Shown here in pieces: positions 462-61,395 of a stretch of DNA of 64,000 nt (the first letter of the stretch is position 1; each line of letters begins with the position of its first letter). The notes beneath the pieces were generated by a model that saw only the letters and a program-made list of their open reading frames with translations, was not told the DNA's origin and searched no databases. Position numbers and translations under genes: made by a program. Origin of the DNA: Phytoseiulus persimilis (taxonomy: Eukaryota > Arthropoda > Arachnida > Mesostigmata > Phytoseiidae); NCBI GenBank assembly GCA_037576195.1, contig CM075103.1, forward strand, positions 5,518,001-5,582,000, written 5' to 3'.

Positions 462-1850
462 TCAGGCGGATTTTTTCGCAGAGGACTTCTTCTTCGCATC
501 GAGGAAAACATTCGATCCACTGTTGTAGTAAGGAGAATATCCAGTCGAGTATCCGAGACCCCCGTAATGGAATCCGCCAAGACCGTAGGAGATAGCGGGA
601 GCAGAGCTGACAGTTCCGTAGGAGACAGCAGGAGCAGCGCCGACGACGCCGTAGGAGACGGCCGGGGCAGCGCTGACAGTCCCGTAAGAAATGGCAGGAG
701 CGGCGCTGACGGTTCTGTAAGAAACAGCCGGGGCAGCGGAGATGGTACTGATTGCGGGAACCGCGCTGACAGCTCCATACGAAACAGCAGGGGCAGCGGC
801 GACAGAGATGGTTCGGGCGCCGATGTTAGAAACCGCTGGGGCGGCAGAAATAACAGCTCCACCATACGACGGGGCGGCGTAGGATGTTCTCACGATGCCT
901 CCTCCGATGACTCCGCCTCCTCCAATGAGTCCTCCTCCGACAGCTCCTCCGGCGTTCACGTCATCGGCGTAGTAGACATGGTGCGAGTCCCCTCCAGCGT
1001 TCACGAACTCAATTGATGGAGCAGGCGATTGACCCTTCACTACCTGAACGATGCGAGCTCCAGGTCGTCCCGGTTTCTGAACATCTACAACCTGGGTCTG
1101 AGCACGAGATACGACACGTTCGACGTGGGCCGGGCCGGACTGGTGGTTGATGACACGAACGTGATGCTGTTCCCCAGGAACCTGGACTTGAGCCACCTGA
1201 GGACCTTCTTGGGGTCCCTCGTGGACACGGATGACCTGATCTCCGGCCTGGAAGTCTTCGATACGTATCGCTGTGTTGCCAGAGCCAGTGTGAATCTCAT
1301 GGGATCGGACAGTGGCCGCGCCGCCAGTGGCAACCACGCCAAGATTCACAGGTGCGGCCGAGGCATATGAAACAGCGGGGGCAGCGGCAGCATACCGGAG
1401 GGCGGGGGCGGCAGCGTAACTGACGGCGGGGGCGGCAGAAACGGTCGCAATTCGAGAAGTCACAGCTGGGGCGGCAACGGCGTAGGATACTGCTGGGCTG
1501 GCCGAAACTGTGGCAATACGAGAGGTCACAGCGGGGGCGGCGACCGCGTAGGACACGGGGGCGGCGGCGACTGAGGAGATGACGGGTGCCGCGGAAGAAA
1601 CGATGGAGTTAGAGTAGAAAGCCGGTGCCGAAGAAATGGTTGAATACCCACCCCCGTAGGACAATGCGGGGGATCTACTGACTGCCGAATAGCCAGTGCC
1701 GTAAGAAATCGCGGGAGCGTAGGACGATCCATAAAGTCCAGAGAGGCCGGAGCCATAGCTCAAGCCGTTGGAGCCGTACGAACTGTAGTATTGGCCGTTG
1801 ACGGCCGCAACAGCGGAGATTGCTGCCAAGGCGGTTCGGAAGGCTCGCAT
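462..1850 (-). CDS. Secreted AAPAVSY-repeat cuticle-type protein
   Basis: This is a single uninterrupted frame of 462 aa. It opens with a signal peptide (MRAFRTALAAISAVAAVNG) followed by a Tyr/Ser/Gly-rich start of the mature chain. Two blocks of Ala-Pro-Ala-Val-Ser-Tyr repeats (about residues 90-170 and 330-430) flank a different, repeat-free centre (about 175-300) with Val, Gln and His-rich text such as QVIRVHEGPQEGPQVAQVQV. A Gly-rich spacer (GGGLIGGGGVIGGG) follows the centre. The tail is basic (DAKKKSSAKKSA). AAPA/AVSY repeats are typical of structural proteins of arthropod cuticle, so an extracellular structural role is likely. I see no chitin-binding Rebers-Riddiford consensus. The start fits a TATA-like box about 55 bases upstream. 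The opposite strand also has long open frames here because of the repeats; I treat them as shadows. Confidence 0.8.
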   Translation of the reverse strand: MRAFRTALAAISAVAAVNGQYYSSYGSNGLSYGSGLSGLYGSSYAPAISYGTGYSAVSRSPALSYGGGYSTISSAPAFYSNSIVSSAAPVISSVAAAPVSYAVAAPAVTSRIATVSASPAVSYAVAAPAVTSRIATVSAAPAVSYAAAPALRYAAAAPAVSYASAAPVNLGVVATGGAATVRSHEIHTGSGNTAIRIEDFQAGDQVIRVHEGPQEGPQVAQVQVPGEQHHVRVINHQSGPAHVERVVSRAQTQVVDVQKPGRPGARIVQVVKGQSPAPSIEFVNAGGDSHHVYYADDVNAGGAVGGGLIGGGGVIGGGIVRTSYAAPSYGGAVISAAPAVSNIGARTISVAAAPAVSYGAVSAVPAISTISAAPAVSYRTVSAAPAISYGTVSAAPAVSYGVVGAAPAVSYGTVSSAPAISYGLGGFHYGGLGYSTGYSPYYNSGSNVFLDAKKKSSAKKSA

Positions 1851-1904
1851 GTTGTTTCTTGAAGAGCGGGAATCAACTGCGGATTCTCTCCGTTCCGCTT
1901 CCGA

Positions 1905-5045: not shown

Positions 5046-5395
5046 TATTAGGGACGGGAATAAGTTTTGTCCGGTTTTCTTCCAAAAATCCAAATTATCA
5101 CAATTTTCCATCACCACAACCGACTTCAATCAAAGTAATCGCCCTCGACAGCCGGACACTTCCTCCACCGATCCACCAAATCAGCGCTTTCCGGCAGCGC
5201 TCAACACTTCATTCTCTTCGAAAAGGATACAACAGCGTTTTTCGGGAGCTCTCCGGCGTTGAAAATTCAGCCACCAAGCTAATTTTGCCAATTGAGGAAG
5301 AGGTACTCATCGGACGGGGCAAGGTCCGGAGAGTAAGGTTGGTGCGGCAGAACCTCGGATTTTAATCGCGTGATGGTGTTCTGGGTGGTCTTTGC

Positions 5396-5702
5396 CGGTC
5401 TAGGACATTTTGGCTTTTGACATTTTGGCTTCGGACACTTTGGCCCCGAAGAAAGTTTGGCTTCAGACATTTTGGCCTCGGAGACATCTTGGCTTCAGAC
5501 ATTTTGGCCTCGGAGACATCTTGGCTTAGGACATTTTGGCCTCGGAAACATCTTGGCTTAGGACATTTTGGCCTCGGAGACATCTTGGCTCAGGACAATT
5601 TGGCCTCGGAGACATCCTGGCTTAGGACAATTTGGCCTCGGAGACATCTTGGCTCAGGACATTTCGGCCTCGGAGTGTTTGGCTTCGGACGTTTTGACCC
5701 GA
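5396..5702. repeat. Left arm of foldback-like copy 1
   Basis: Between about 5465 and 5690 there are six to seven direct copies of a 32-bp unit that differ by one to three bases, each a dimer of the GACATYTTGGCYT half-unit. The first 70 bases carry shorter variant units. This arm has about three more units than the opposite arm, so the arms expand and contract independently. Confidence 0.9.
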
Positions 5703-5867
5703 TTTCGATGGCAAGTCATATCCGAAACCTTGAGGGTTTGACCAATGCTTGCGTGGCTTATCCGTTGTACTAATGACCTTTACCGATCTTGAGGTAGGCC
5801 CTCGCGAATCGAGTCTGTTTTCAGAATCCATACCGCTAGCTTTGTAACCCGAATATAGGAGTACGGA

Positions 5868-5987
5868 ATGATTTCCGCGCCACGGAGAGCGGAAATCATC
5901 TGACATTAATATCTGCTAGTATTTTGTTGAGCATGATTCTATCGAACCTACGAGGCCTCTTTCCGATCAATTGAGGATAGAATCATG
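5868..5987. repeat. Nested hairpins in the foldback-like core
   Basis: The first hairpin has 11-base arms ATGATTTCCGC (5868-5878) and GCGGAAATCAT (5889-5899). The second has 12-base arms CATGATTCTATC (5932-5943) and GATAGAATCATG (5976-5987) around a 32-base loop. In copy 2 the first hairpin is 12 of 12 bases (56342-56353 and 56364-56375). Confidence 0.85.
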
Positions 5988-6129
5988 GTTGGCAACATGG
6001 GAAGATCCTCGCAGGAATCGACATCGAGTGATTCCCGCTCTCCGTGGTGCGAAATTCATTTCTGCTCTAAGATAGCGGACGAGATGCACTATAGATCCGG
6101 GTGTACCATACGACCTCGCTCTCCGAAGA

Positions 6130-6334
6130 TGAGGATGTCCGAAGCCAGGATGTCTCCGAGGCCAAAGTGTCCAAAGCGAAGATGTCTCCGAGGCCAAAAT
6201 GTCCCAAGCCAAGATGTCTCCGAGGCAAAAATGTACAAAGCCAAGATGTCTCCGAGGCCAAAATGTCTAAAGCCAAAGAGTCCGTGGCAAAACGTCCGAA
6301 GCCAAAATGTCCAAAGCCAAAATGACCGGCTCCG
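6130..6334. repeat. Right arm of foldback-like copy 1
   Basis: This is the inverted counterpart of the left arm, with units reading CCGAGGCCAAAATGTC and CCAAGATGTCT. About five 32-bp units remain, followed by a terminal block ending GACCGGCTCCG. Confidence 0.9.
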
Positions 6335-7277
6335 GGTCTTTGCAATGTGGGGCCTCGCGTTGACATGTTGAAGGATAACTCTCCGTCTTGTTATGAGGCT
6401 GGGTTGCTTCCGGGGCAACGTTTCATACACCCGCTCCAGCTGCGCAGAGTAGACTTCAACAGTCACTGTTCCGCCGGGTTCCAAGAATTAATGATGTACG
6501 ATTCCTTTGTTATCCCACCAGACACACGGGAGGAGCTTTTTTTTTGATGGTCTTCTGCTTCGCGTGCCTGTAGGTCGGTGCTCTTCGAAGAACCCACTAG
6601 TACTGGCGAGTTTCGTTGTCGTATTGGACCCACTTCTCATCACCAATAACGATCCAGTCGAGGAAACTGCACAGGGAGTGTCGTTGCACCAGGAAACTGC
6701 ACATATTCGCTCGCAAATGTTTCTGACGAGACGTTAACAGATGGGCTATCCATTGTCCGAACTTATGAACTCTTCCCATTGCATGCACATGATTCCGGAT
6801 CGCATGGTCACTGACACCGAACCTCTCGGCTATCGCAACACTCCTCAGCCCGGGACTCTCTCCCAGTGCTGTGAATAATGGCATCGTCGAATATCTCTTC
6901 AGGTCTGGCAGACCTGGGAGCATCTTTGAGGTTGATGTCCCACGCGCGAAAATTTTGGAACCATCTTTGAATTGTCTTGATTGATACGCAAGAAGCCCCG
7001 AATGCCACATACAACTCTTCAGCCGTGTGTGCAGCTGTATCCCCGAGTTGAAACTTGAAGAGTAGAATTACCCGAAAATCCTCTCGATGTGACTCCATTT
7101 TGTTGTTTCACCTAAGAAAAAAACGGCCGAGATGAATGCCGCCGACGTCAATGCGTTCGAGTCTCATCCACCAACGACACGCAATGCTGGTTTGGGACGG
7201 CTGACGATACGTGTTTCTCCCGGGATGCAACAAAGTTAGAGTTAGTGAATGCCGGACACAACTTTTTCCATCCCTAA

Positions 7278-7927
7278 TAGGTTCATGATCTCTGTGGACG
7301 ATTGTGACGAATTCCGAGCACACCTCGTACTCAGACTGAGGTGCTACCAAGTACGAATCCGGGAGTGTCTCATCTCGAGAAGGAGGTCATCCGAGTCGTC
7401 ACCCCAATTCGAGTTTGAATTTGTCATCTTCGACAATTTCCTTTGCAAGAACGCATTTTCCGATGTGCAGGCAGGGGATGTCGAGACAAGATACAAGGCT
7501 CTATCTTCATTCAACGATGTCTTGACGCTGTCGCCAATACGCAATCATTCCGCGTGGTATGTTTCGCTCGACTTCAGGGAGTGTTCGAGCAGCTCGTGTC
7601 GGCTCGGGGCTCCTGGACCAGGCCAAAGAGCGAATGGGGCCGAAATTTCCAGTACCATTCTGATCCTGTCTTGCCGTCAAGGGTGAAAAAAATCTCGGGA
7701 AAATGGGATACGTGACAAATGAGCCTATCAAGTTCTGAGCCTCACGGAGCGACGCGAGGGCCAGACATGTCGCCTCAATAATTTCGTCGCCTTTTTCCGC
7801 AGGGGGCGGCAGGCTTCCTCCGGGCACGAGGGCTGACAGAGGAAAGGTATCGTGATTTCGATTGGATTTGCTTGATCTTTCATATACATCATCTGAACCC
7901 TTCTTATTACAGGGGTGAGTTGAATTG
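7278..7927. other. Intergenic, no gene recognised
   Basis: This is the short gap between the mariner element and the LINE remnant. I see no gene in it. Confidence 0.4.
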
Positions 7928-8670
7928 TAGTCACAGATCTTGTCTCTCCCACTTAATTAGGGTAGTTTTCGTCCTCCGTAGGACTGCCTGGGTTGTTTTC
8001 GGCGGAAGTCCGATACGGTAGGGGAATTCCTCTAGGGAGATAGAGTCTTCCTCGCATCCCAGGACCACGTGTCTGTCCGTTTCGGTTCTGCCGCACCTTG
8101 GGCATTTGATGTCGATGGAAGGGTCGCACTTCCGGTGCTTTTTCAGGATGGTTAACATCCCTGCTCTCGTTAGAGCTAAAAGCTGGCTTCCGCGCGTGTT
8201 GTCGTACAGCCTTTGCTGGACACCTCTGGACCGCTTGTGTTGACGGTAACACGCCGATGTGGATTTGGAATGCATAGCCTGTTTCCATCTGAGTCCAGTT
8301 TATCTTGTACCTTTTTTCTAAGGTCTTTGCGGAATGTGTTCCATATTGGCTGTCCTGATGTGTTTCTGGCTATTCCGATGATTCTCCTCAATGAACACGT
8401 GGGCAATAACGGCACTAGAATTCATCGTGTCACGCGACGGGGAATAACGATCATATTTGTCGTCCTCTTGCATAGAGTACGACTATATTTGCGGTGGGAT
8501 CGACGCAAAACTTTCGCTCCAATAACTTGTTGGATTCCGTATCGGATGGAAAGCCAGTTAACCAGACTTGATTGTACCCAAAGGCCTTGACTGTCAGAGG
8601 TGACATGTCTCCGAGAATCTAGTCGTTCCCCTCTAATCGCCTTCGTCATCTCCCTCACGTAACTCAATCA
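7928..8670 (-). mobile_element. Decayed non-LTR (LINE) 3' end
   Basis: The longest intact stretch is 114 codons at 7931-8275. It reads QLLALTRAGML followed by CPRCGRTETDRHVVLGC, the Cys/His knuckle found after the reverse transcriptase of many non-LTR elements, and then a tail ending in KWERQDL and a stop. Upstream on the same strand other frames carry LRRIIGIARNTSGQPIWN and FRKDLRKKVQDKL, which look like the C-terminal reverse transcriptase flank. The frames do not join, so the copy is dead and 5' truncated. The same tail architecture recurs at the right edge of the window. Confidence 0.7.
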
Positions 8671-12688: not shown

Positions 12689-15600
12689 TTACGAGCTTGA
12701 GTATTGATCTTTGCTTCCAACTTTGCACAGATCGTAGATTCGATACTTCTTATGTCGGTCTCCGACCATCACAACGACATCGTTTTCGTCTTTAATGTCG
12801 ACGACGTAACCCTCTTCCTCGCCGCCTTCGGATATAATTTTGCATCTCTCGTTTTCGCGAGGTCTCACCGGCTCAAGGTAATGTGAGTCCACACTGATGA
12901 CGCGGGCCTCCTTCTCCAGGAGAACCGAGCAAACATTCCCGGAGATTCCAGTGATGATGCACTGCTGCCCAACGAGACCCTTGTCCTTGTTCTCGGCCGC
13001 TCGGATTCGGCATTCGAGATCGACGGCTTGCCATTCCATCGGCATGTGGTCCATTCCCCCGCCCGGCGTTTGGGGGTTGTTGAAAGGACTTGCGGCCACT
13101 CCCGGCGTCATCGGTGAGAAGAACTGGGAGTTCGGGTTGTTGTAGCCCATGGGCGAAGGCGTCGTTAGGGGATTGCCTGGAGACGGCAGCTGGTAACTGC
13201 TACTGGACGGAGACGGCGAGGCTTGGTAGGGCGAGAACGGAGCCTCATGCGAACTGTACATTCCTCCGGGTGTTTGAGGTGTGAACGGTCCTCCGACTTG
13301 CGGGGTATCGGGCTGGTAACCTGGCGTTGCGGGATTGTACGACGGAGAGGGTTCGTGCTCGTACTCGTCGAATTCCTCGCTGCGCGCCGGAGTGCTTGCA
13401 TGATCCCATGACGCACTGTGCGAGGGAGTGCGCGACCCATCGTGTCGCGGTGTTTCGTTGCCGTAATGGGGCGTTCTGCTTCCAGCTGTGGAGGGGGAAA
13501 TCAGAGTTAGACATCGGCGGAAAATTTTCCGGAAGTCGTCGGCATGAGGTCACACACGAGAAGAGGACGACCGCTGGGAATTTATGAACAGCTAAGTTAG
13601 GCAGCCCGATACTCACGTTCGTACATAGGTGTCTGAGAACCTTGCATGGGTGTACGAGACCCATGAATCGGAGTCTGGTTCCCGTACATCGGGGTCGCGT
13701 TGCCGTGAGCGGGCGTGCGGGTGTACGACGACGCTCCTCCAGAAGCTCTCCCCGACACTCCCGCGGCGGGCTCGAGGCGGGTGCAATCCACGCTGATTGT
13801 CTGACATTTAGCGTGCAACTCGACTCGAGCTGTCGAATGTGTCGCGTCTTTGACGATTCCGATGTGGCCCTTATAGGGACCCTTCGTGATTTTGATCGTT
13901 TTCCCGATCAGAAGGAAATCTCGCCTGTTCTGATGAGCTCCTCCTCTCCCGTGACCTGATGCGTGCATCGGCGAGCGCATGGGACTGCGACCTTCGGCCG
14001 TAGGATGCGGACTCGAAATTCGCGGCGACAGGGGGGAGAACCCGCCCATCGCCAAGCCGGAGCCCGAACCGGAATGGACTTTGTTGCCAGCCAGGGTCAG
14101 ATGTCTTGTTTTGCAGACGAACATCCCACCGTTCTCAGTCATCAGCCGTGAGTGCAGGAAGGCGTGCACTCGGAATATATGTTTGACTTCTCCCGTCCTC
14201 CCGGAATGTGGTCCATCGTTGATTTTAACCATGTCTTTGACGTGTATCTGGTTCTGCTCAGAGTCGAGAGCGACCGCTTTTTTCGAGTCACATTTACGAG
14301 TGATTTTCTGGTGTTTGACTGACAGTACTTTTCCTGATTGGGAAAGAATCTGGAAATTCTCTTTCTCTAGACGCACGATGACTCCGACGGTTTGAGCATC
14401 CAGCTGCACGAGATCCCCGTACTGGTACTGACCGAAGGAATCAACACCCGTCGCAGTGTCGGCACACAGTTGTAGGTCCTTGGTGCGGACCTTGAGCTCC
14501 TCACTGTTGAGATCGGAGAGGAGGATCGCGATCGCGTTGTCCACACGAATGATCATTCCAGTGTCGTTCTCGTGACGTCCGTTCAGGACCTTCACGTGAT
14601 CACCGGCCTTGAAGAACTTTTTGAGTTCATAGGCGTTGAACTCGATCGGATCGTTGAGTTCGTCGTGTTTCGGGAGGATCGTGACTTTGTTCCCGTCAAC
14701 GCTGATGACTCTACCCTTGAGATTCACGAGCTCGCCTTCAGGTACGATGACATAGTCACCGGGTGCGAAATGCTCTTTCATGTCGAGGCTTCCGCTCTTC
14801 TCGCCCAGATCGATTTCGAGGTTCTCAGGCTGTTCGTCGAACTTCTGCAGTTCTTCCAAGGTGGGTTTGATACCCTCGGTCAGGATGGCGTTCATGTTGA
14901 AAGCCTTGAAGAGGAATCCTTTCCGGGAATACCTCTGACCCTCGAAAATGAGGAAGTCTCCATCGGTTGAGACATCGCCGCCGATCCCGCGGATGGCTTC
15001 CACATCGAACAATCTCTGTACCGGCCTCTTGTATTTGCGCTTCTTGTCCGAATCGGCTGTGCTCTTCAACGCGCCACGCATTTTTGTGTAGTCGATCCGA
15101 GGGATCATCATGAGCTCGACTTTGTTCTGCGCCTGTTCCACATGGTAGACCTGAGCTAAATCGTCTTTGTACACCCCACGTTTCAGGCGTACCCACTGAC
15201 CGCGAGACAGGGTCGGCTGCTGTTTCGTGACTCGCAGAACTTCGGTCATTTCTTTGATCGCCACCATGGTCTGCTCATAGGTACCCATTTTCAGTGTTCC
15301 CACACCGTCGATAGCCGCCTTGATGTGAGTGTGCTTGAAAGCTTCGATGTAGATGTAGCCTTTCACACCCTCCGGCGCGATGACCGATCGTATCTGCAAA
15401 GGCTCTTTCTGCGTTTGGAACGCGATGAACTTCCTCATCAGTTGCAGAGCCGTCGCTTTCTCGTCTCCGAGGCGACACTTGACCATCCACATCATAGGGT
15501 CCCTGAAAACGAGAGAAGAAGGCTTCAGCAGGCGTTCAGGAGAATCGGGAGGGCGGAAGTTTGAACCATGATCATTGCTTCAAATAGAAAGAAATAAGCG

Positions 15601-16422
15601 ACGGTGACCCACTTGACACTGGGAAGGAGAGTTTGACGGTGTATGTCATCGTTGGCTTCGAGATCACCCTGATCACCTCGGAAACCTCGATGATCGCTCT
15701 TCGGATCAGCGTATTTGCGTCTGTAGTAATCCTCGATTTCGTCCGGCTTGCGGTCGAGCATCATTTGAAGACGTCGATGACTGTGGAGGTTTCCTTCTTG
15801 ACGACCGATATCGTCGTCGAGGAGTCCGCCTCTGCTTCGTCCTTTGTCGGCGATGAGTTCCTCGGCTCCCTCTTCCCATTCTTCCTCATCCTCAACATCG
15901 GTGTCGACCTCAGCTTCCTCAATGAGGAAACCGCGTCCTCGGGACTTCTTCTTCTTGCTGTGCCGACCTCCTTCCTCTTCATCTTCCTCATCGTACTGCG
16001 GGCATGAAAAATCTCCGTCAGTGACCGTCTCCAGTGAGATTGGACACCACGACAATGACCGAATAGGATAATGTACCCATGACTGAGACGAAAATCGATT
16101 CCCGCCTGTCAAGTTTCCGAGGGACAAGCATCAGGAAGACCTCTCTAGCTACTCACGTCATCTTCGTCATCTTCATCATCGTCATCGAAGCGAGATCTTT
16201 TCTTTGAGCGACTGGTTGAAGCTTCTTCTTCGCTAGCTTCGTTCTGAAACATAGAATCCAAGCATGAGAGCAGGACTCATCGAGGCTTCCGTCCCTCGTT
16301 GCTTCGGTTGTGTCGACCATGCATTTCGTATCGAGTAGATGCTTCAACTCGGTACCAACCTCGCTGCCCTGCGCGCTCTGAGCCTCGTTGTCCGAGAAAT
16401 CACTGCCTTCGCTGTCAGACAT
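12689..16422 (-). CDS. Spt5: Transcription elongation factor SPT5
   Basis: Spt5 pairs with Spt4 to form DSIF, which clamps RNA polymerase II in the nucleus and controls pausing and elongation. Five exons join in phase: 16360-16422, 16157-16243, 15613-15995, 13617-15502 and 12689-13485, giving about 1071 aa (human SPT5 has 1087). The N-terminus is strongly acidic (runs of D/E to about residue 110). The NGN domain begins near residue 178 ([20 protein letters not shown]). KOW-type units follow near 280 ([15 protein letters not shown]), 425, 473, 602 and 710 ([18 protein letters not shown]). A C-terminal repeat region of [15 protein letters not shown] units and a Ser/Pro-rich stretch come next, then a last KOW ([15 protein letters not shown]). 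All borders are GT..AG with standard donors. The start at [15 protein letters not shown] fits the acidic family N-terminus. It is intact. Confidence 0.97.
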
Positions 16423-55695: not shown

Positions 55696-55965
55696 TCACG
55701 AGTGGAACGCATTTTGCTTAGATGCTTCCGGTCGAGTGAGGACGCGTCGCTCCCAACTTGCGAGACGCTGAACGTTTACAGACAAGATCGGAAATCGTCT
55801 GGGATGATTACTGACAATGCGAGCGACTGATGAGAGCTGGGAATCTCCGGTATATGCGACGGAGAAGTGCCCAGAACCGATGTTATCAACCAGCCAGATG
55901 TGGCGAAACAATGGAGAGTTTCCAGAGTTTTTTTCCACAAAATATACAGCTTCCATGAAGGTCAA
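55696..55965 (-). pseudogene. Cdc7-like kinase N-lobe fragment
   Basis: The frame reads SPLFRHIWLVDNIGSGHFSVAY followed by VARIVSNHPRRF. The first part looks like a kinase glycine-rich loop (IGxGxFSxVY) preceded by the helix found in Cdc7 kinases, and the second part aligns with the Cdc7 text ALKHLIPTSHPIRI, with Arg at the place of the ATP-binding Lys. I see no HRD or DFG motif nearby on this strand. It is 90 codons long and begins just 6 bases from foldback-like copy 2. It may be a gene scrap or an exon whose neighbours I missed. Confidence 0.3.
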
Positions 55966-55971
55966 TCCTGT

Positions 55972-56764
55972 CGGAGCCGGTCATTTTGGCTTTGGACATT
56001 TTGGCTTCGGACGTTCTGGCACGGACTCTTTGGCTTTAGACATTTTGGCCTCGGAGACATCTTGGCTTTGGACATTTTGGCCTCGGAGACATCCTGGCTT
56101 TGGACATCCTCATCTTCGGAGAGCGAGGTCGTATAGTACACCCGGATCTATGGTGCATCTCGTCCGCTATCTTAGAGCAGGAATGAATTCCGCACCACGG
56201 AGAGCGGGAATCACTTGATATCGATTCCTGCGAGGATCTTCCCATGTTGCCAACCATGATTCTATCCTGAATTGATCGGAAAGAGGCCTCGTAGGTTCGA
56301 TAGAATCATGCTCAACAAGATACTAGCAGATATTAATGTCAGATGATTTCCGCTCTCCGTGGTGCGGAAATCATCCCGTTTTCCTATATTCGGGTTACAA
56401 AGCTAGCGGTATGGAATCTGAAGACAGGCTCGATTCGCGAGGGCCTACGTCAAGATCGGTAAAGGTCATCAGAACAACGGATAAGCTACGCAAGCATTGG
56501 TCAAACCCTCAAGGTATCGGATATAACTCGCCATCGAAATCGAGTCAAAACGTCCGAAGCCAAACACTCCGAGGCCGAAATGTCCTGAGCCGAGATGTCC
56601 CTGAGGCCAAAATGTCCTAAGCCACGACGTCTCCGAGACCAAAATGTCCTGAGCCAAGATGTCTCCGAGGCCAAAATGTCTGAAGCCAAACTGTCTTCGG
56701 GGCCAAAGTGTCCGTGCCGAAACGTCCGAAGCCAAAATGTCAAAAGCCAAAATGTCCTAGACCG
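55972..56764. mobile_element. Foldback-like element, copy 2
   Basis: This 793-bp copy lies in the opposite orientation to copy 1. It is flanked by a perfect 9-bp duplication, CAATCCTGT, at 55963-55971 and 56765-56773. The ends CGGAGCCGGTC and CTAGACCG match those of copy 1. The core, including both hairpins (56342-56375 and the CATGATTCTATC pair near 56255-56310), is nearly the same. The arms have fewer 32-bp units, which accounts for the 146-bp size difference. The frames running through the arms are repeat artefacts. No transposase is present. Confidence 0.93.
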
Positions 56765-56999
56765 CAATCCTGTACAATGTCGTGGAACGGTTGTACAGTG
56801 CACGCATGATTCACGGTTGGTTTTGTTTACGAAACTGATCTCGAACAGATATCGAGCTGAATCCAGAGTTCCGTGATATCACATGCCATGTTCCAGTAGA
56901 GTTCCGGTAATGGCCGACGTGGGGAACGCATGAAAATGAGAGGAGGACGAAGTTGACCGAATCGGGATGTGCCTGAACTTTCTGCTGGTGTACGCCTCC

Positions 57000-58539: not shown

Positions 58540-61395
58540 CATCGAGGGCGGTTCGTGCGAAGCAAGTTCAACTAGGACGTTGACGTCTCCGAACTGCTCT
58601 TGAATCACCTTGTTCTCTCCATGTGTATCGCTGAGTTTATTATACTCATGTTCCGACTCAGTCCATATATCGCGGCGAGCTTCGATTCGAACGAGCTTGA
58701 ACGGGCCCTTACAAGCGTAGCGAGATTGAATTGTGACAGACCCGATGCGAGGGTGGTCGTCGTTCCCGACCGCCGCTACGAGACTGCTTCTCCTCCGCTT
58801 CCGAAATCTCTTCGCGCCACGAAACGAGTTGCGTGACCAAATATCGTAGAACGTACAACGAAGTCTGAACTCTGTGCGCATACGGAGCATTCGGATCGTC
58901 CCGGGCGACCAAAGTCCCGAGCGCTTCCGCATCGGGAAGTCTGCTCGGCTTTTGTCCAAGATCGGAAAGCAAATCCAAAGTCACATTTTTATGGGCGCCA
59001 GCGGTATAATAAAGACAAATGCTCCTCGGCATCAATGACTGAGTACACATGTCAGATCGGGCGGGATCTGACCGATGTGACGCTCGAGCAATGTGCTTCT
59101 CTACGGGAGCGCAATGCCGATGGCTAGCCAAATTTCACATCGTAAGCCCCGAACGTTTTGTTCCTCTCGAGTGGGACGATTTTTGAAACGGCCGGCGGCC
59201 AACTTGGGAAACGCTATGCTGGATCCCTCTCTCACTCAAAGGAGCCCCTCAAGAGTCAATTACTTGGAAACTCGCGTCTCATTTCGTATGGACCCCGCAG
59301 CGCTGTTTCCGCACGAACAGAAAACGACGGGAGAATGATGGAAAACCGAAGATTTGTCAAGCGAGTTGCCCTGTTGGGAGCCCTACTCAGACGAAAACAT
59401 CTACAGGAGTCGCACTCCTATAGAAATTGGAGCTCCCGAGACCTGGACTCTTGCTCTTCGAAGCCGAAATAAATGGAGCGGAGCCAGAGCCAGCGCGAGT
59501 GGCGTGCAATGACAACAACGGTCCCCACGCAGGGTACAAAACAACAACAACAGCTCGGAACGGGCTGGTTAGCGATTCTCACACGCGCGTCGTTGACTTT
59601 CAATTCTCGCTGGGTGAATTATTTGATGCAGTGTAGCTAGCGAGCTACCTGGAAGCCGGACCGAGTCTCATCACGTAGTGCGGTTCTTCGCCTTACAGCT
59701 CCTTGTTCCGTCGGCGCGCGGGATATTAATTCTGTCATTTGTCAAGTGTGCCATTCCCGAGACAGTTTTTACGGAGCGAAGAAAGGGTGCACGGTCGATG
59801 CATCATCACGGTCCGTTTATTAAAGCCGAGAAAAGAGATGCGAGTCTTAGAAGCACATTAATCTTTAATGAAGTATGAATTACGGACTCCACGGACCTGC
59901 TACAGAGTCCTGCATATCAACAGCTGTCACTCATTCATTCGCTCTGTGAACTTAATATTCTGACCTAAATGAGACGGCGGCGACTCCTGCAACGCGATCC
60001 GTAGTCCATACCAAGGGAGACACTACGCCGAGCGGACGGCGGGAGAATCCGCAGCCGACTCCTAATCATTGCAAAGGAAACGGAGATTGGATCAAGATTA
60101 CGGAGACGGGAACTCATCGAGCTCCAACTATGCCATAGTCTGAGCAACTCGTTTGAAGTTGAGCCTCTGGGTGAAACAGTCGCCCCGTGAGCGTAGCCGA
60201 ATCTGAGCAGCCAGCCAGCGTCCTCTCCCATAGAAGCTCGCGAGCTGGTTTCGAGCTCTGACGGCAATCAACAGAAATAACGAGGAGTTCCCGCGACGCT
60301 CCTTGATTTGTCGCTTATCAAATTATAGAACTATCCTTATAGTGGTTGCACATGAGTTCCATGAATGTGACGTGAGTCAGCATCTTCTGCCGTTCCGCGA
60401 GTTGACCCCGAAATCGCGAAGCAACCGAATCCGCGACATCGCGGCTTGCTGACGTAGGCAGCCGGCGATGCTGCATCGGCATCGCTCAGGTTTCACCGCA
60501 AGGACGAATATGCGTTTCGCCTTTTACTAAACGCATCCGTGCGGAGGAACACTCACAATGAGCCTAATGGCAATTTTTGCAGCTCCGCGAGGAGCACCCT
60601 TAAACAATCAAAGAATAAAGGTCGCGGTGGAGGTCTGCTGGCATCTTAGTGAGTCAGACTGCCCGATCGGCATCGTTTCCTCCTCCCCTGGGATGTTTGG
60701 AAACAGTTGTGCACCCTTTCGTATCCGAGAATTGCGTCGGAAGCCCGTACGCGTTTTGCGTAGATTGTGGAGGATTACACTGACTGTGAGAGGCATTGCA
60801 TCTTGCGACTCTGACTCGGGAAGAAAGAAAACAGGATTTTTATTTTTTCAAATCTTCTGATTTTCGAGTCAGGATGGTTCCCAAGGTGGTGTTCAACGTC
60901 GAAAGGGCCTCTCCGAGGAGTACGCGGAGCGAAATGGCCGTATCATCGAACGAGTGAACAAAAGAAGCAATGAGAACGTTGTTGTGAGCCGTGCATCGCG
61001 CTGCCGCTATGTTTCAAAGCGCGCTCGGATGCAGCCAATGCTCAACGAGCGCCTTTCAAAAGGTAACGACTTCCGTCACCGAGCAACCCCCGCGGACTCT
61101 CCGCCATCGCCAGGATGAGCCTGAACCGGAGCTCTTGAATGCCACTCAACTCCCTTGGCTGCTCTGCGCCTGCCTTGCAACGAGTCGGTGCTCCGGACGC
61201 CATCAACCAGTTTCATGCTTCGAACTGCACATCACAATCGAATTGTGTACACAAATATCTCTCCGTGTTTGTTGCACTCGGGCTGGGGCGCCGGCCTGGC
61301 AACAAGTTCGTGTACAATGAGGAAGATTTCCCATACTTGAACAGCTCAGTGTCGCGTTCCGAGATTTTGGACAGTTTCCTGAGGCCGGGATTTTG
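58540..61395. other. Stretch without a recognised gene
   Basis: Overlapping minus-strand frames at 58534-59131 look protein-like in places but match nothing I know. I saw no RNA genes. Confidence 0.3.

What the first reader, a model, noticed from the sequence alone, without database searches (positions are those of the whole stretch)
5387..6343. Foldback-like transposon with 9-bp target duplication and 32-bp subrepeat arms
A 939-bp element starts and ends with matching inverted sequence, is flanked by the exact repeat GGTCTTTGC, and has arms built of tandem 32-bp units. Foldback elements of Drosophila share 9-bp duplications and subrepeated arms. The sequence here (GACATYTTGGCYT units) is not one I recognise, and no transposase is present, so it may be an undescribed non-autonomous family.
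Basis: partly seen in the sequence, partly recalled or inferred. Interest (0 to 1): 0.75.

Follow-up and report, generated by a model that had tools for sequence, protein, structure and literature searches.

The report
Non-autonomous foldback Mutator-like transposon, two copies
This is a real "jumping gene" of an ordinary kind: a short DNA transposon with repeat-built ends, most likely moved by a Mutator-type enzyme encoded elsewhere, present twice in this stretch and once caught inside another transposon.

Summary
Copy 1 is 5396-6334 (939 bp) with the exact 9-bp duplication GGTCTTTGC. A second copy lies in reverse orientation at 55972-56764 (793 bp) with a different exact 9-bp duplication, CAATCCTGT. 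The copies share a 438-bp core (415 of 438 identical, no gaps) and both end sequences; flanks beyond the duplications are alike only at chance level. Their arms differ mainly by numbers of 32-bp units. Copy 1 sits inside a mariner transposon (5048-7277, TA-flanked): without the element and one 9-mer it is 1282 bp, and two flanking protein pieces meet at the same Mos1 residue. No transposase was recognised in the frames scanned. The build is that of foldback-type Mutator-like elements (MULEs) Tm1 of root-knot nematodes and Muta1/Muta5 of Aedes: 8-10-bp duplications, short terminal motifs, variable tandem-repeat arms. The left end CGGTCTA-GGA matches Tm1's CGGTTAA-GGA at 8 of 10 bases. Best reading: a non-autonomous MULE, probably of the Phantom/Muta group, moved in trans. 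The family may be unnamed, but the kind is known. Missing: the host assembly and an autonomous copy.

The parts
5387..5395 (+). 9-bp target site duplication GGTCTTTGC, left copy
   Evidence: codons for AKT of the interrupted mariner transposase, duplicated
5396..5403 (+). left terminal motif CGGTCTAG; same in copy 2
5396..5696 (+). left arm, 301 bp, with seven recognised 32-bp units (15 + 17 bp)
5697..6134 (+). core, 438 bp, 415 of 438 identical to the core of copy 2, no gaps; no Rfam match
5867..6060 (.). imperfect palindrome inside the core, also present in copy 2
6135..6334 (-). right arm, 200 bp, inverted relative to the left arm, with four recognised 32-bp units
6327..6334 (-). right terminal motif CGGAGCCG (read inward); same in copy 2
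6335..6343 (+). 9-bp target site duplication GGTCTTTGC, right copy
5048..7277 (-). mariner transposon that the element entered; 1282 bp without the element and one 9-mer; TA at 5046-5047 and 7278-7279; inverted ends
55963..55971 (+). 9-bp target site duplication CAATCCTGT of copy 2, left
55972..56764 (-). copy 2 of the element, 793 bp, opposite orientation; arms 136 bp (55972-56107) and 219 bp (56546-56764), core 56108-56545
56765..56773 (+). 9-bp target site duplication CAATCCTGT of copy 2, right

Best explanation
A non-autonomous (transposase-less) DNA transposon of foldback build, most likely a Mutator-like element, and within these most likely of the Phantom/Muta group. Shown here: it lies at two unrelated sites, each with its own 9-bp target duplication; both copies have the same two different ends (CGGTCTAG.. 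and CGGAGCCG..); the arms differ between copies mainly by numbers of 32-bp units; one copy entered a mariner transposon. Inferred: a MULE transposase encoded elsewhere in the genome binds the repeated GACATNTTGGC motifs of the arms, brings the ends together, cuts at the CGG ends and joins them to a target cut with a 9-base stagger. Also inferred: arm repeats are gained and lost by slippage or unequal exchange, and the ability to fold back is a consequence of the arms rather than the means of movement. The confidence given is for a non-autonomous element of the Mutator superfamily in the wide sense; for the Phantom/Muta group in particular about 0.6. The first rival overlaps with the wide sense, so the figures do not add up to 1.
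For: Two copies, each with its own exact 9-bp duplication. Flanks unrelated. Empty site in mariner: the flanking pieces, searched apart, match Mos1 and SETMAR. In Mos1 chain 4mda the first piece ends with query residue 50 at chain residue 137 (table, E 0.007, alignment not shown) and the second begins with query residue 2 at chain residue 137 (alignment shown, E 8.5e-07); both query residues are the lysine codon of the duplicated 9-mer. In SETMAR 3k9j the first piece ends at 151 (E 3e-09) and the second starts with query residue 4 at 153, which agrees if carried back two residues. Mariner length 1282 bp without element and one 9-mer, TA on both sides. No transposase domain in 20 of the window's 101 listed open frames nor in 5 frames through the two copies, apart from a sub-threshold Transposase_1 match in the mariner part of one. 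Tm1: mostly 8-10-bp (most commonly 9-bp) duplications, unequal 7-bp end motifs (A1 CGGTTAA or CGGATAA), then GGA, then variable numbers of 13-15-bp tandem repeats, and a MULE transposase placed by its authors in the Phantom subclass (PMC3169594, section 5, section 11 part 1 and passages). Our left end CGGTCTA-GGA agrees with CGGTTAA-GGA at 8 of 10; 412 of 200,000 random pairs of window 10-mers reach 8 or more in the best of 8 comparisons. [quoted passage not shown]).
Against: No transposase with these ends was seen, so the superfamily rests on duplication length and end architecture. Only two copies are known, both from one window. The Tm1 end resemblance was looked for after reading the paper, covers one end only (right end at best 6 of 10), and is short. 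The 32-bp (15 + 17) dimer unit is not described in the passages read for Tm1 or Muta. The Pfam negatives are weak: the mariner frame 6597-7067 also gave no family and another mariner piece scored below cut-off, so a decayed transposase could be missed.
Confidence: 0.8

Rival explanations
1. A foldback element driven by a NOF/FB-type or Rehavkus-type transposase (9-bp duplications, repeat-rich termini) rather than by the Phantom/Muta group. This overlaps with the Mutator superfamily in the wide sense.
For: Rehavkus is listed with 9-bp duplications, 26-400-bp TIRs and a minisatellite, in Arthropoda and Annelida (PMC6446971 Table 1 and passages). Rehavkus-1_TC carries a 164-bp satellite unit in its inverted termini (PMC10218199 passages), so repeats in both ends are not foreign to it. 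Drosophila FB with about 31-bp repeats and 9-bp duplications is recalled, from no call.
Against: PMC6446971 describes the Rehavkus minisatellite as lying before the 3' TIR, while here both arms are built of the same units. The unequal terminal motif followed by GGA has its match in Tm1.
Confidence: 0.25
2. A foldback-like element of another superfamily, such as P/Galileo or Merlin.
For: Foldback structure is known in more than one superfamily; Galileo has a P-element transposase (PMC3169594 section 11; PMC3688188 abstract).
Against: Both copies have exact 9-bp duplications. P-type duplications are shorter (7-8 bp, recalled). Merlin elements with 8-9-bp duplications have short simple ends (recalled).
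Confidence: 0.1
3. Not a transposon: a local inverted minisatellite duplication with a chance 9-bp match.
For: The arms are minisatellite-like.
Against: Second copy about 50 kb away with the same ends and its own duplication; unrelated flanks; exact interruption of a mariner gene.
Confidence: 0.01

Closest known systems
Tm1 (Meloidogyne), Mutator/Foldback, Phantom subclass (PMC3169594)
   Same: mostly 9-bp duplications; unequal terminal motifs outside the inverted repeat; first motif CGGTTAA then GGA against CGGTCTA then GGA here; arms of variable numbers of 13-15-bp tandem repeats; non-coding members of similar size (one of 1080 bp)
   Different: repeat sequence unrelated by eye (CGATTCAGTATCCGC); repeats here are 15 + 17 dimers of 32 bp; no histone hairpin seen (no Rfam match); second end motif not alike
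Muta1 and Muta5 (Aedes aegypti MULEs; PMC5225508)
   Same: 8-9-bp duplications; short terminal motif (8 bp in Muta5) then subterminal tandem repeats (15 bp in Muta5); many transposase-less derivatives, those of Muta1 with variable repeat number
   Different: repeat sequence not compared (not on hand); full-length Muta1 carries a transposase, none recognised here
Tetris (Drosophila virilis foldback; PMC4079207)
   Same: copies without conserved open frames, with 8-10-bp duplications and tandem repeats in the arms, assigned by its authors to Mutator on duplication length
   Different: other repeats (named TIR-220) instead of 32-bp units; sequence not compared
FB/NOF of Drosophila melanogaster (recalled)
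   Same: 9-bp duplications and subrepeated arms of about 31 bp
   Different: sequence not on hand and not compared
Galileo (P superfamily; PMC3688188, abstract)
   Same: foldback build; tandem repeats in the arms hold transposase binding sites
   Different: different superfamily; duplication length (recalled) does not fit

Membership tests
Class II DNA transposon, foldback type | target site duplication | tested here: met
   2 of 2 copies, 9 bp exact, different sequence each
Class II DNA transposon, foldback type | same element at unrelated sites | tested here: met
   flank identity 24-33 of 100 in 4 comparisons between copies; 29 and 22 of 100 between the two flanks of one copy
Class II DNA transposon, foldback type | long inverted arms built of tandem subrepeats, variable in length | tested here: met
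   left arms 301 and 219 bp with 7 and 4 recognised units; right arms 200 and 136 bp with 4 and 2
Mutator-like elements (MULE) | 8-11-bp target duplications | tested here: met
   9 bp, 2 of 2; range from PMC6446971
Mutator-like elements (MULE) | MULE (DDE) transposase in the family | not testable with these tools
   host genome not held; no MULE domain in 20 of 101 listed window frames nor in 5 frames through the copies
Phantom/Muta group (Tm1-like) | unequal terminal motifs outside the inverted repeat, as in Tm1 (other Phantom elements have simpler ends) | tested here: met
   CGGTCTAG and CGGAGCCG, kept in both copies
Phantom/Muta group (Tm1-like) | sequence likeness to Tm1 end motifs | tested here: inconclusive
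   left end 8 of 10, right end at best 6 of 10
Phantom/Muta group (Tm1-like) | FLYWCH plus MULE transposase | not testable with these tools
   no autonomous copy on hand
Rehavkus | PHD-finger transposase and minisatellite before the 3' TIR | not testable with these tools
   no transposase on hand; the repeat units here are in both arms
P/Galileo | 7-8-bp duplications (recalled) | tested here: not met
   9 bp in 2 of 2

The most novel reading that the evidence does not exclude
An unnamed foldback MULE family in an arthropod-like genome, whose arms are higher-order (15 + 17) repeats and whose core holds a conserved palindrome with a role of its own, for instance as a nested mobile unit or a source of small RNAs.
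Probability: 0.15. Interest if true: 0.35.

Novelty: new member of a known kind. Interest (0 to 1): 0.22.

Why it matters
It adds a probable new family to foldback-type Mutator elements, with a clean nested insertion showing the exact 9-bp duplication. Its unequal ends plus repeat arms repeat a design reported in nematode and mosquito MULEs, which would support an old, shared end architecture for the Phantom group if an autonomous copy is found. Otherwise it is ordinary repeat annotation.

Tried and rejected
Looked for relatives outside the window: three exact-pattern scans of viral contigs (two arm patterns, one core pattern) found 0 stretches, and one 30-base core pattern in genome contigs (bacteria and archaea) found 0. 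None of these collections is expected to hold the host, so the zeros say little. A paper-library search for four arm words gave 6 papers; by their listed titles none concerns this kind of element, and none was opened.

Tested whether 32-bp units are arm-specific, which would suggest local amplification in each arm. By mean distance they are not: the observed difference is slightly negative (-0.05) and 9,623 of 20,000 label shuffles reach it (17 units from the 4 arms). Not supported.

Tested whether the element is a known RNA or carries a histone hairpin as in Tm1-HH: no Rfam match at E up to 1, none in the element at gathering score.

Tested frames through the two copies against Pfam: 5 of the 19 frames of 60 aa or more that overlap them. 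No family except a sub-threshold Transposase_1 match (15.9 bits, cut-off 24) at residues 1-33 of window 6089-6487, which is the mariner flank, not the element.

Considered that foldback pairing drives movement. The whole strand folds far better than shuffles (z -29.7, 20 shuffles), but that follows from inverted arms and is no evidence of mechanism.

Full report
OBSERVATION. The sequence at 5387-6343 is as described: a 939-bp element (5396-6334) between two exact copies of GGTCTTTGC, with tandem arms in inverted orientation. Tandem Repeats Finder gives a 32-bp period in both arms (5419-5696 and 6135-6311). Each 32-bp unit is a 15-bp and a 17-bp half, mostly beginning GACATNTTGGC. The outermost 8 bp are not mirror images: CGGTCTAG on the left and CGGAGCCG on the right, read inward, agree at 4 of 8.

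A SECOND COPY. The same window holds a second, oppositely oriented copy at 55972-56764 (793 bp), flanked by a different exact 9-bp repeat, CAATCCTGT. The 438-bp cores differ at 23 of 438 positions (17 transitions, 6 transversions) without gaps. The left ends are identical for the first 41 bp and the right ends for the first 44 bp, while left and right ends of copy 1 agree for only the first 3 bp. The left arms are 301 and 219 bp with 7 and 4 recognised 32-bp units (at least 24 of 32 matches to a consensus), the right arms 200 and 136 bp with 4 and 2. The left arms also differ by a 14-bp stretch near the outer end that copy 1 lacks (by eye). Of 6 ungapped flank comparisons over 100 positions, the 4 between copies give 24, 28, 30 and 33 matches and the 2 between the flanks of one copy 29 and 22, which is chance level. 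All 33 matches to the unit (up to 3 mismatches) in the window lie in these two elements, against 0.70 expected in shuffles.

CHANCE. Random pairs of sites share an identical 9-mer in 8 of 200,000 draws, and in 79 of 200,000 with 3 bp of slack. Two independent exact 9-mers at two copies with the same ends are not chance.

EMPTY SITE. Copy 1 interrupts a mariner transposon. Inverted ends with TA on either side lie at 5046-5079 and 7247-7279 (82% over 34 aligned positions, E 0.012, the best of the listed inverted matches between the flanks). The mariner is 2230 bp with the insert and 1282 bp without the element and one 9-mer, close to the usual mariner size (about 1.3 kb, recalled). The two flanking pieces of its broken gene were searched apart in the PDB. 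Window 6335-6487 (minus) matches SETMAR (3k9j, chain 102-151, E 3e-09) and, weakly, Mos1 (4mda, chain 88-137, E 0.007). Window 5282-5395 (minus) matches Mos1 (4mda, chain 137-170, E 8.5e-07) and SETMAR (3k9j, chain 153-185 from query residue 4, E 7.9e-05). Both pieces include the duplicated 9-mer (residues AKT), and its lysine falls on Mos1 residue 137 in both; in SETMAR it falls on 151 in one and, carried back two residues without a gap, on 151 in the other. The duplication is therefore exactly three codons. The order of events is mariner first, then this element.

NO CODING CAPACITY RECOGNISED. The longest stop-free frame inside copy 1 is 132 residues (core through right arm) and inside copy 2 is 97. 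Of the 19 frames of 60 aa or more that overlap the copies (10, 9), 5 were scanned against Pfam; the one match is a sub-threshold Transposase_1 in the mariner part of a frame. Of the 101 window frames of 120 aa or more, 20 others were scanned (10 at E up to 0.001, 10 at E up to 0.1) and none hit a transposase. This negative is weak, because one of these 20 (6597-7067) lies in the mariner and was not recognised either. No Rfam family matches the element.

HOW IT PROBABLY WORKS. Shown: two insertions with 9-bp duplications, fixed unequal ends, arms differing mainly by repeat units. Inferred: a transposase made elsewhere recognises the repeated arm motif and the ends, and moves the element by cut and paste with a 9-base staggered cut in the target. 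Precedent for arm repeats as transposase binding sites is Galileo (PMC3688188, abstract). Precedent for a transposase moving transposase-less relatives with tandem-repeat arms is Muta1 in yeast (PMC5225508, passages). The full strand can fold into a long hairpin (z -29.7 against 20 shuffles), which follows from the arms.

COMPARISON. The nearest published designs I found are Tm1 (PMC3169594; section 5, section 11 part 1 and passages read) and Muta1/Muta5 (PMC5225508; passages). Both combine 8-10-bp duplications, short terminal motifs and tandem-repeat arms; Tm1 is assigned by its authors to Phantom, and PMC6446971 places Muta elements with Phantom (passages). The left end CGGTCTA-GGA agrees with Tm1 CGGTTAA-GGA at 8 of 10 positions; the right end reaches at most 6 of 10. 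A best-of-8 score of 8 or more occurs in 412 of 200,000 random pairs of window 10-mers. This comparison was made after reading the paper and is a lead, not proof. Membership of the Phantom clade requires a transposase and could not be tested. The founding Phantom paper is not held. Rehavkus (9 bp, minisatellite) and the Drosophila FB/NOF type (recalled) remain possible.

HOST. The window holds an SPT5 gene whose best PDB matches are 5oik and 9j0n at 831 bits, against 286 bits or less for the full-length chains ranked below 9eh1 (that 5oik is human is recalled), a U5 snRNA gene and a mariner. The genome is not held. An arthropod is likely from mariner and a cuticle-like protein, but that is recollection, not a test.

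VERDICT. A real, once mobile element of foldback build without recognised transposase, most likely a Mutator-like element: a new member of a known kind. Whether the family has a name in a repeat library could not be checked. Paper searches that bear on this: 20 of 475 listed; 15 of 34 listed; in what was listed, no title or start of abstract describes this sequence.

Noticed in passing
window 5048-7277 (-): A degenerate mariner transposon with TA target and inverted ends, its gene broken by stops and by the element.
   Followed up: yes
window 5867-6060 and, in copy 2, about 56180-56374: An imperfect palindrome inside the core whose two ends are each themselves near-palindromic by eye. Present in both copies; origin and role unknown. 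The core RNA fold scores z -3.9.
   Followed up: partly
window 12689-16130 (-): SPT5 transcription elongation factor gene, its domains spread over three open frames (Pfam and PDB matches).
   Followed up: no
window 60482-60595 (+): U5 spliceosomal RNA gene, 77.6 bits.
   Followed up: no
window 462-1904 (-): 480-aa open frame, low-complexity, cuticle-like by recollection; Pfam Mucin-like below its cut-off.
   Followed up: no
window 7931-8299 (-): Frame with CPRCGRTETDRHVVLGC, which by recollection resembles the C-terminal zinc motif of non-LTR retrotransposons; no Pfam match.
   Followed up: no
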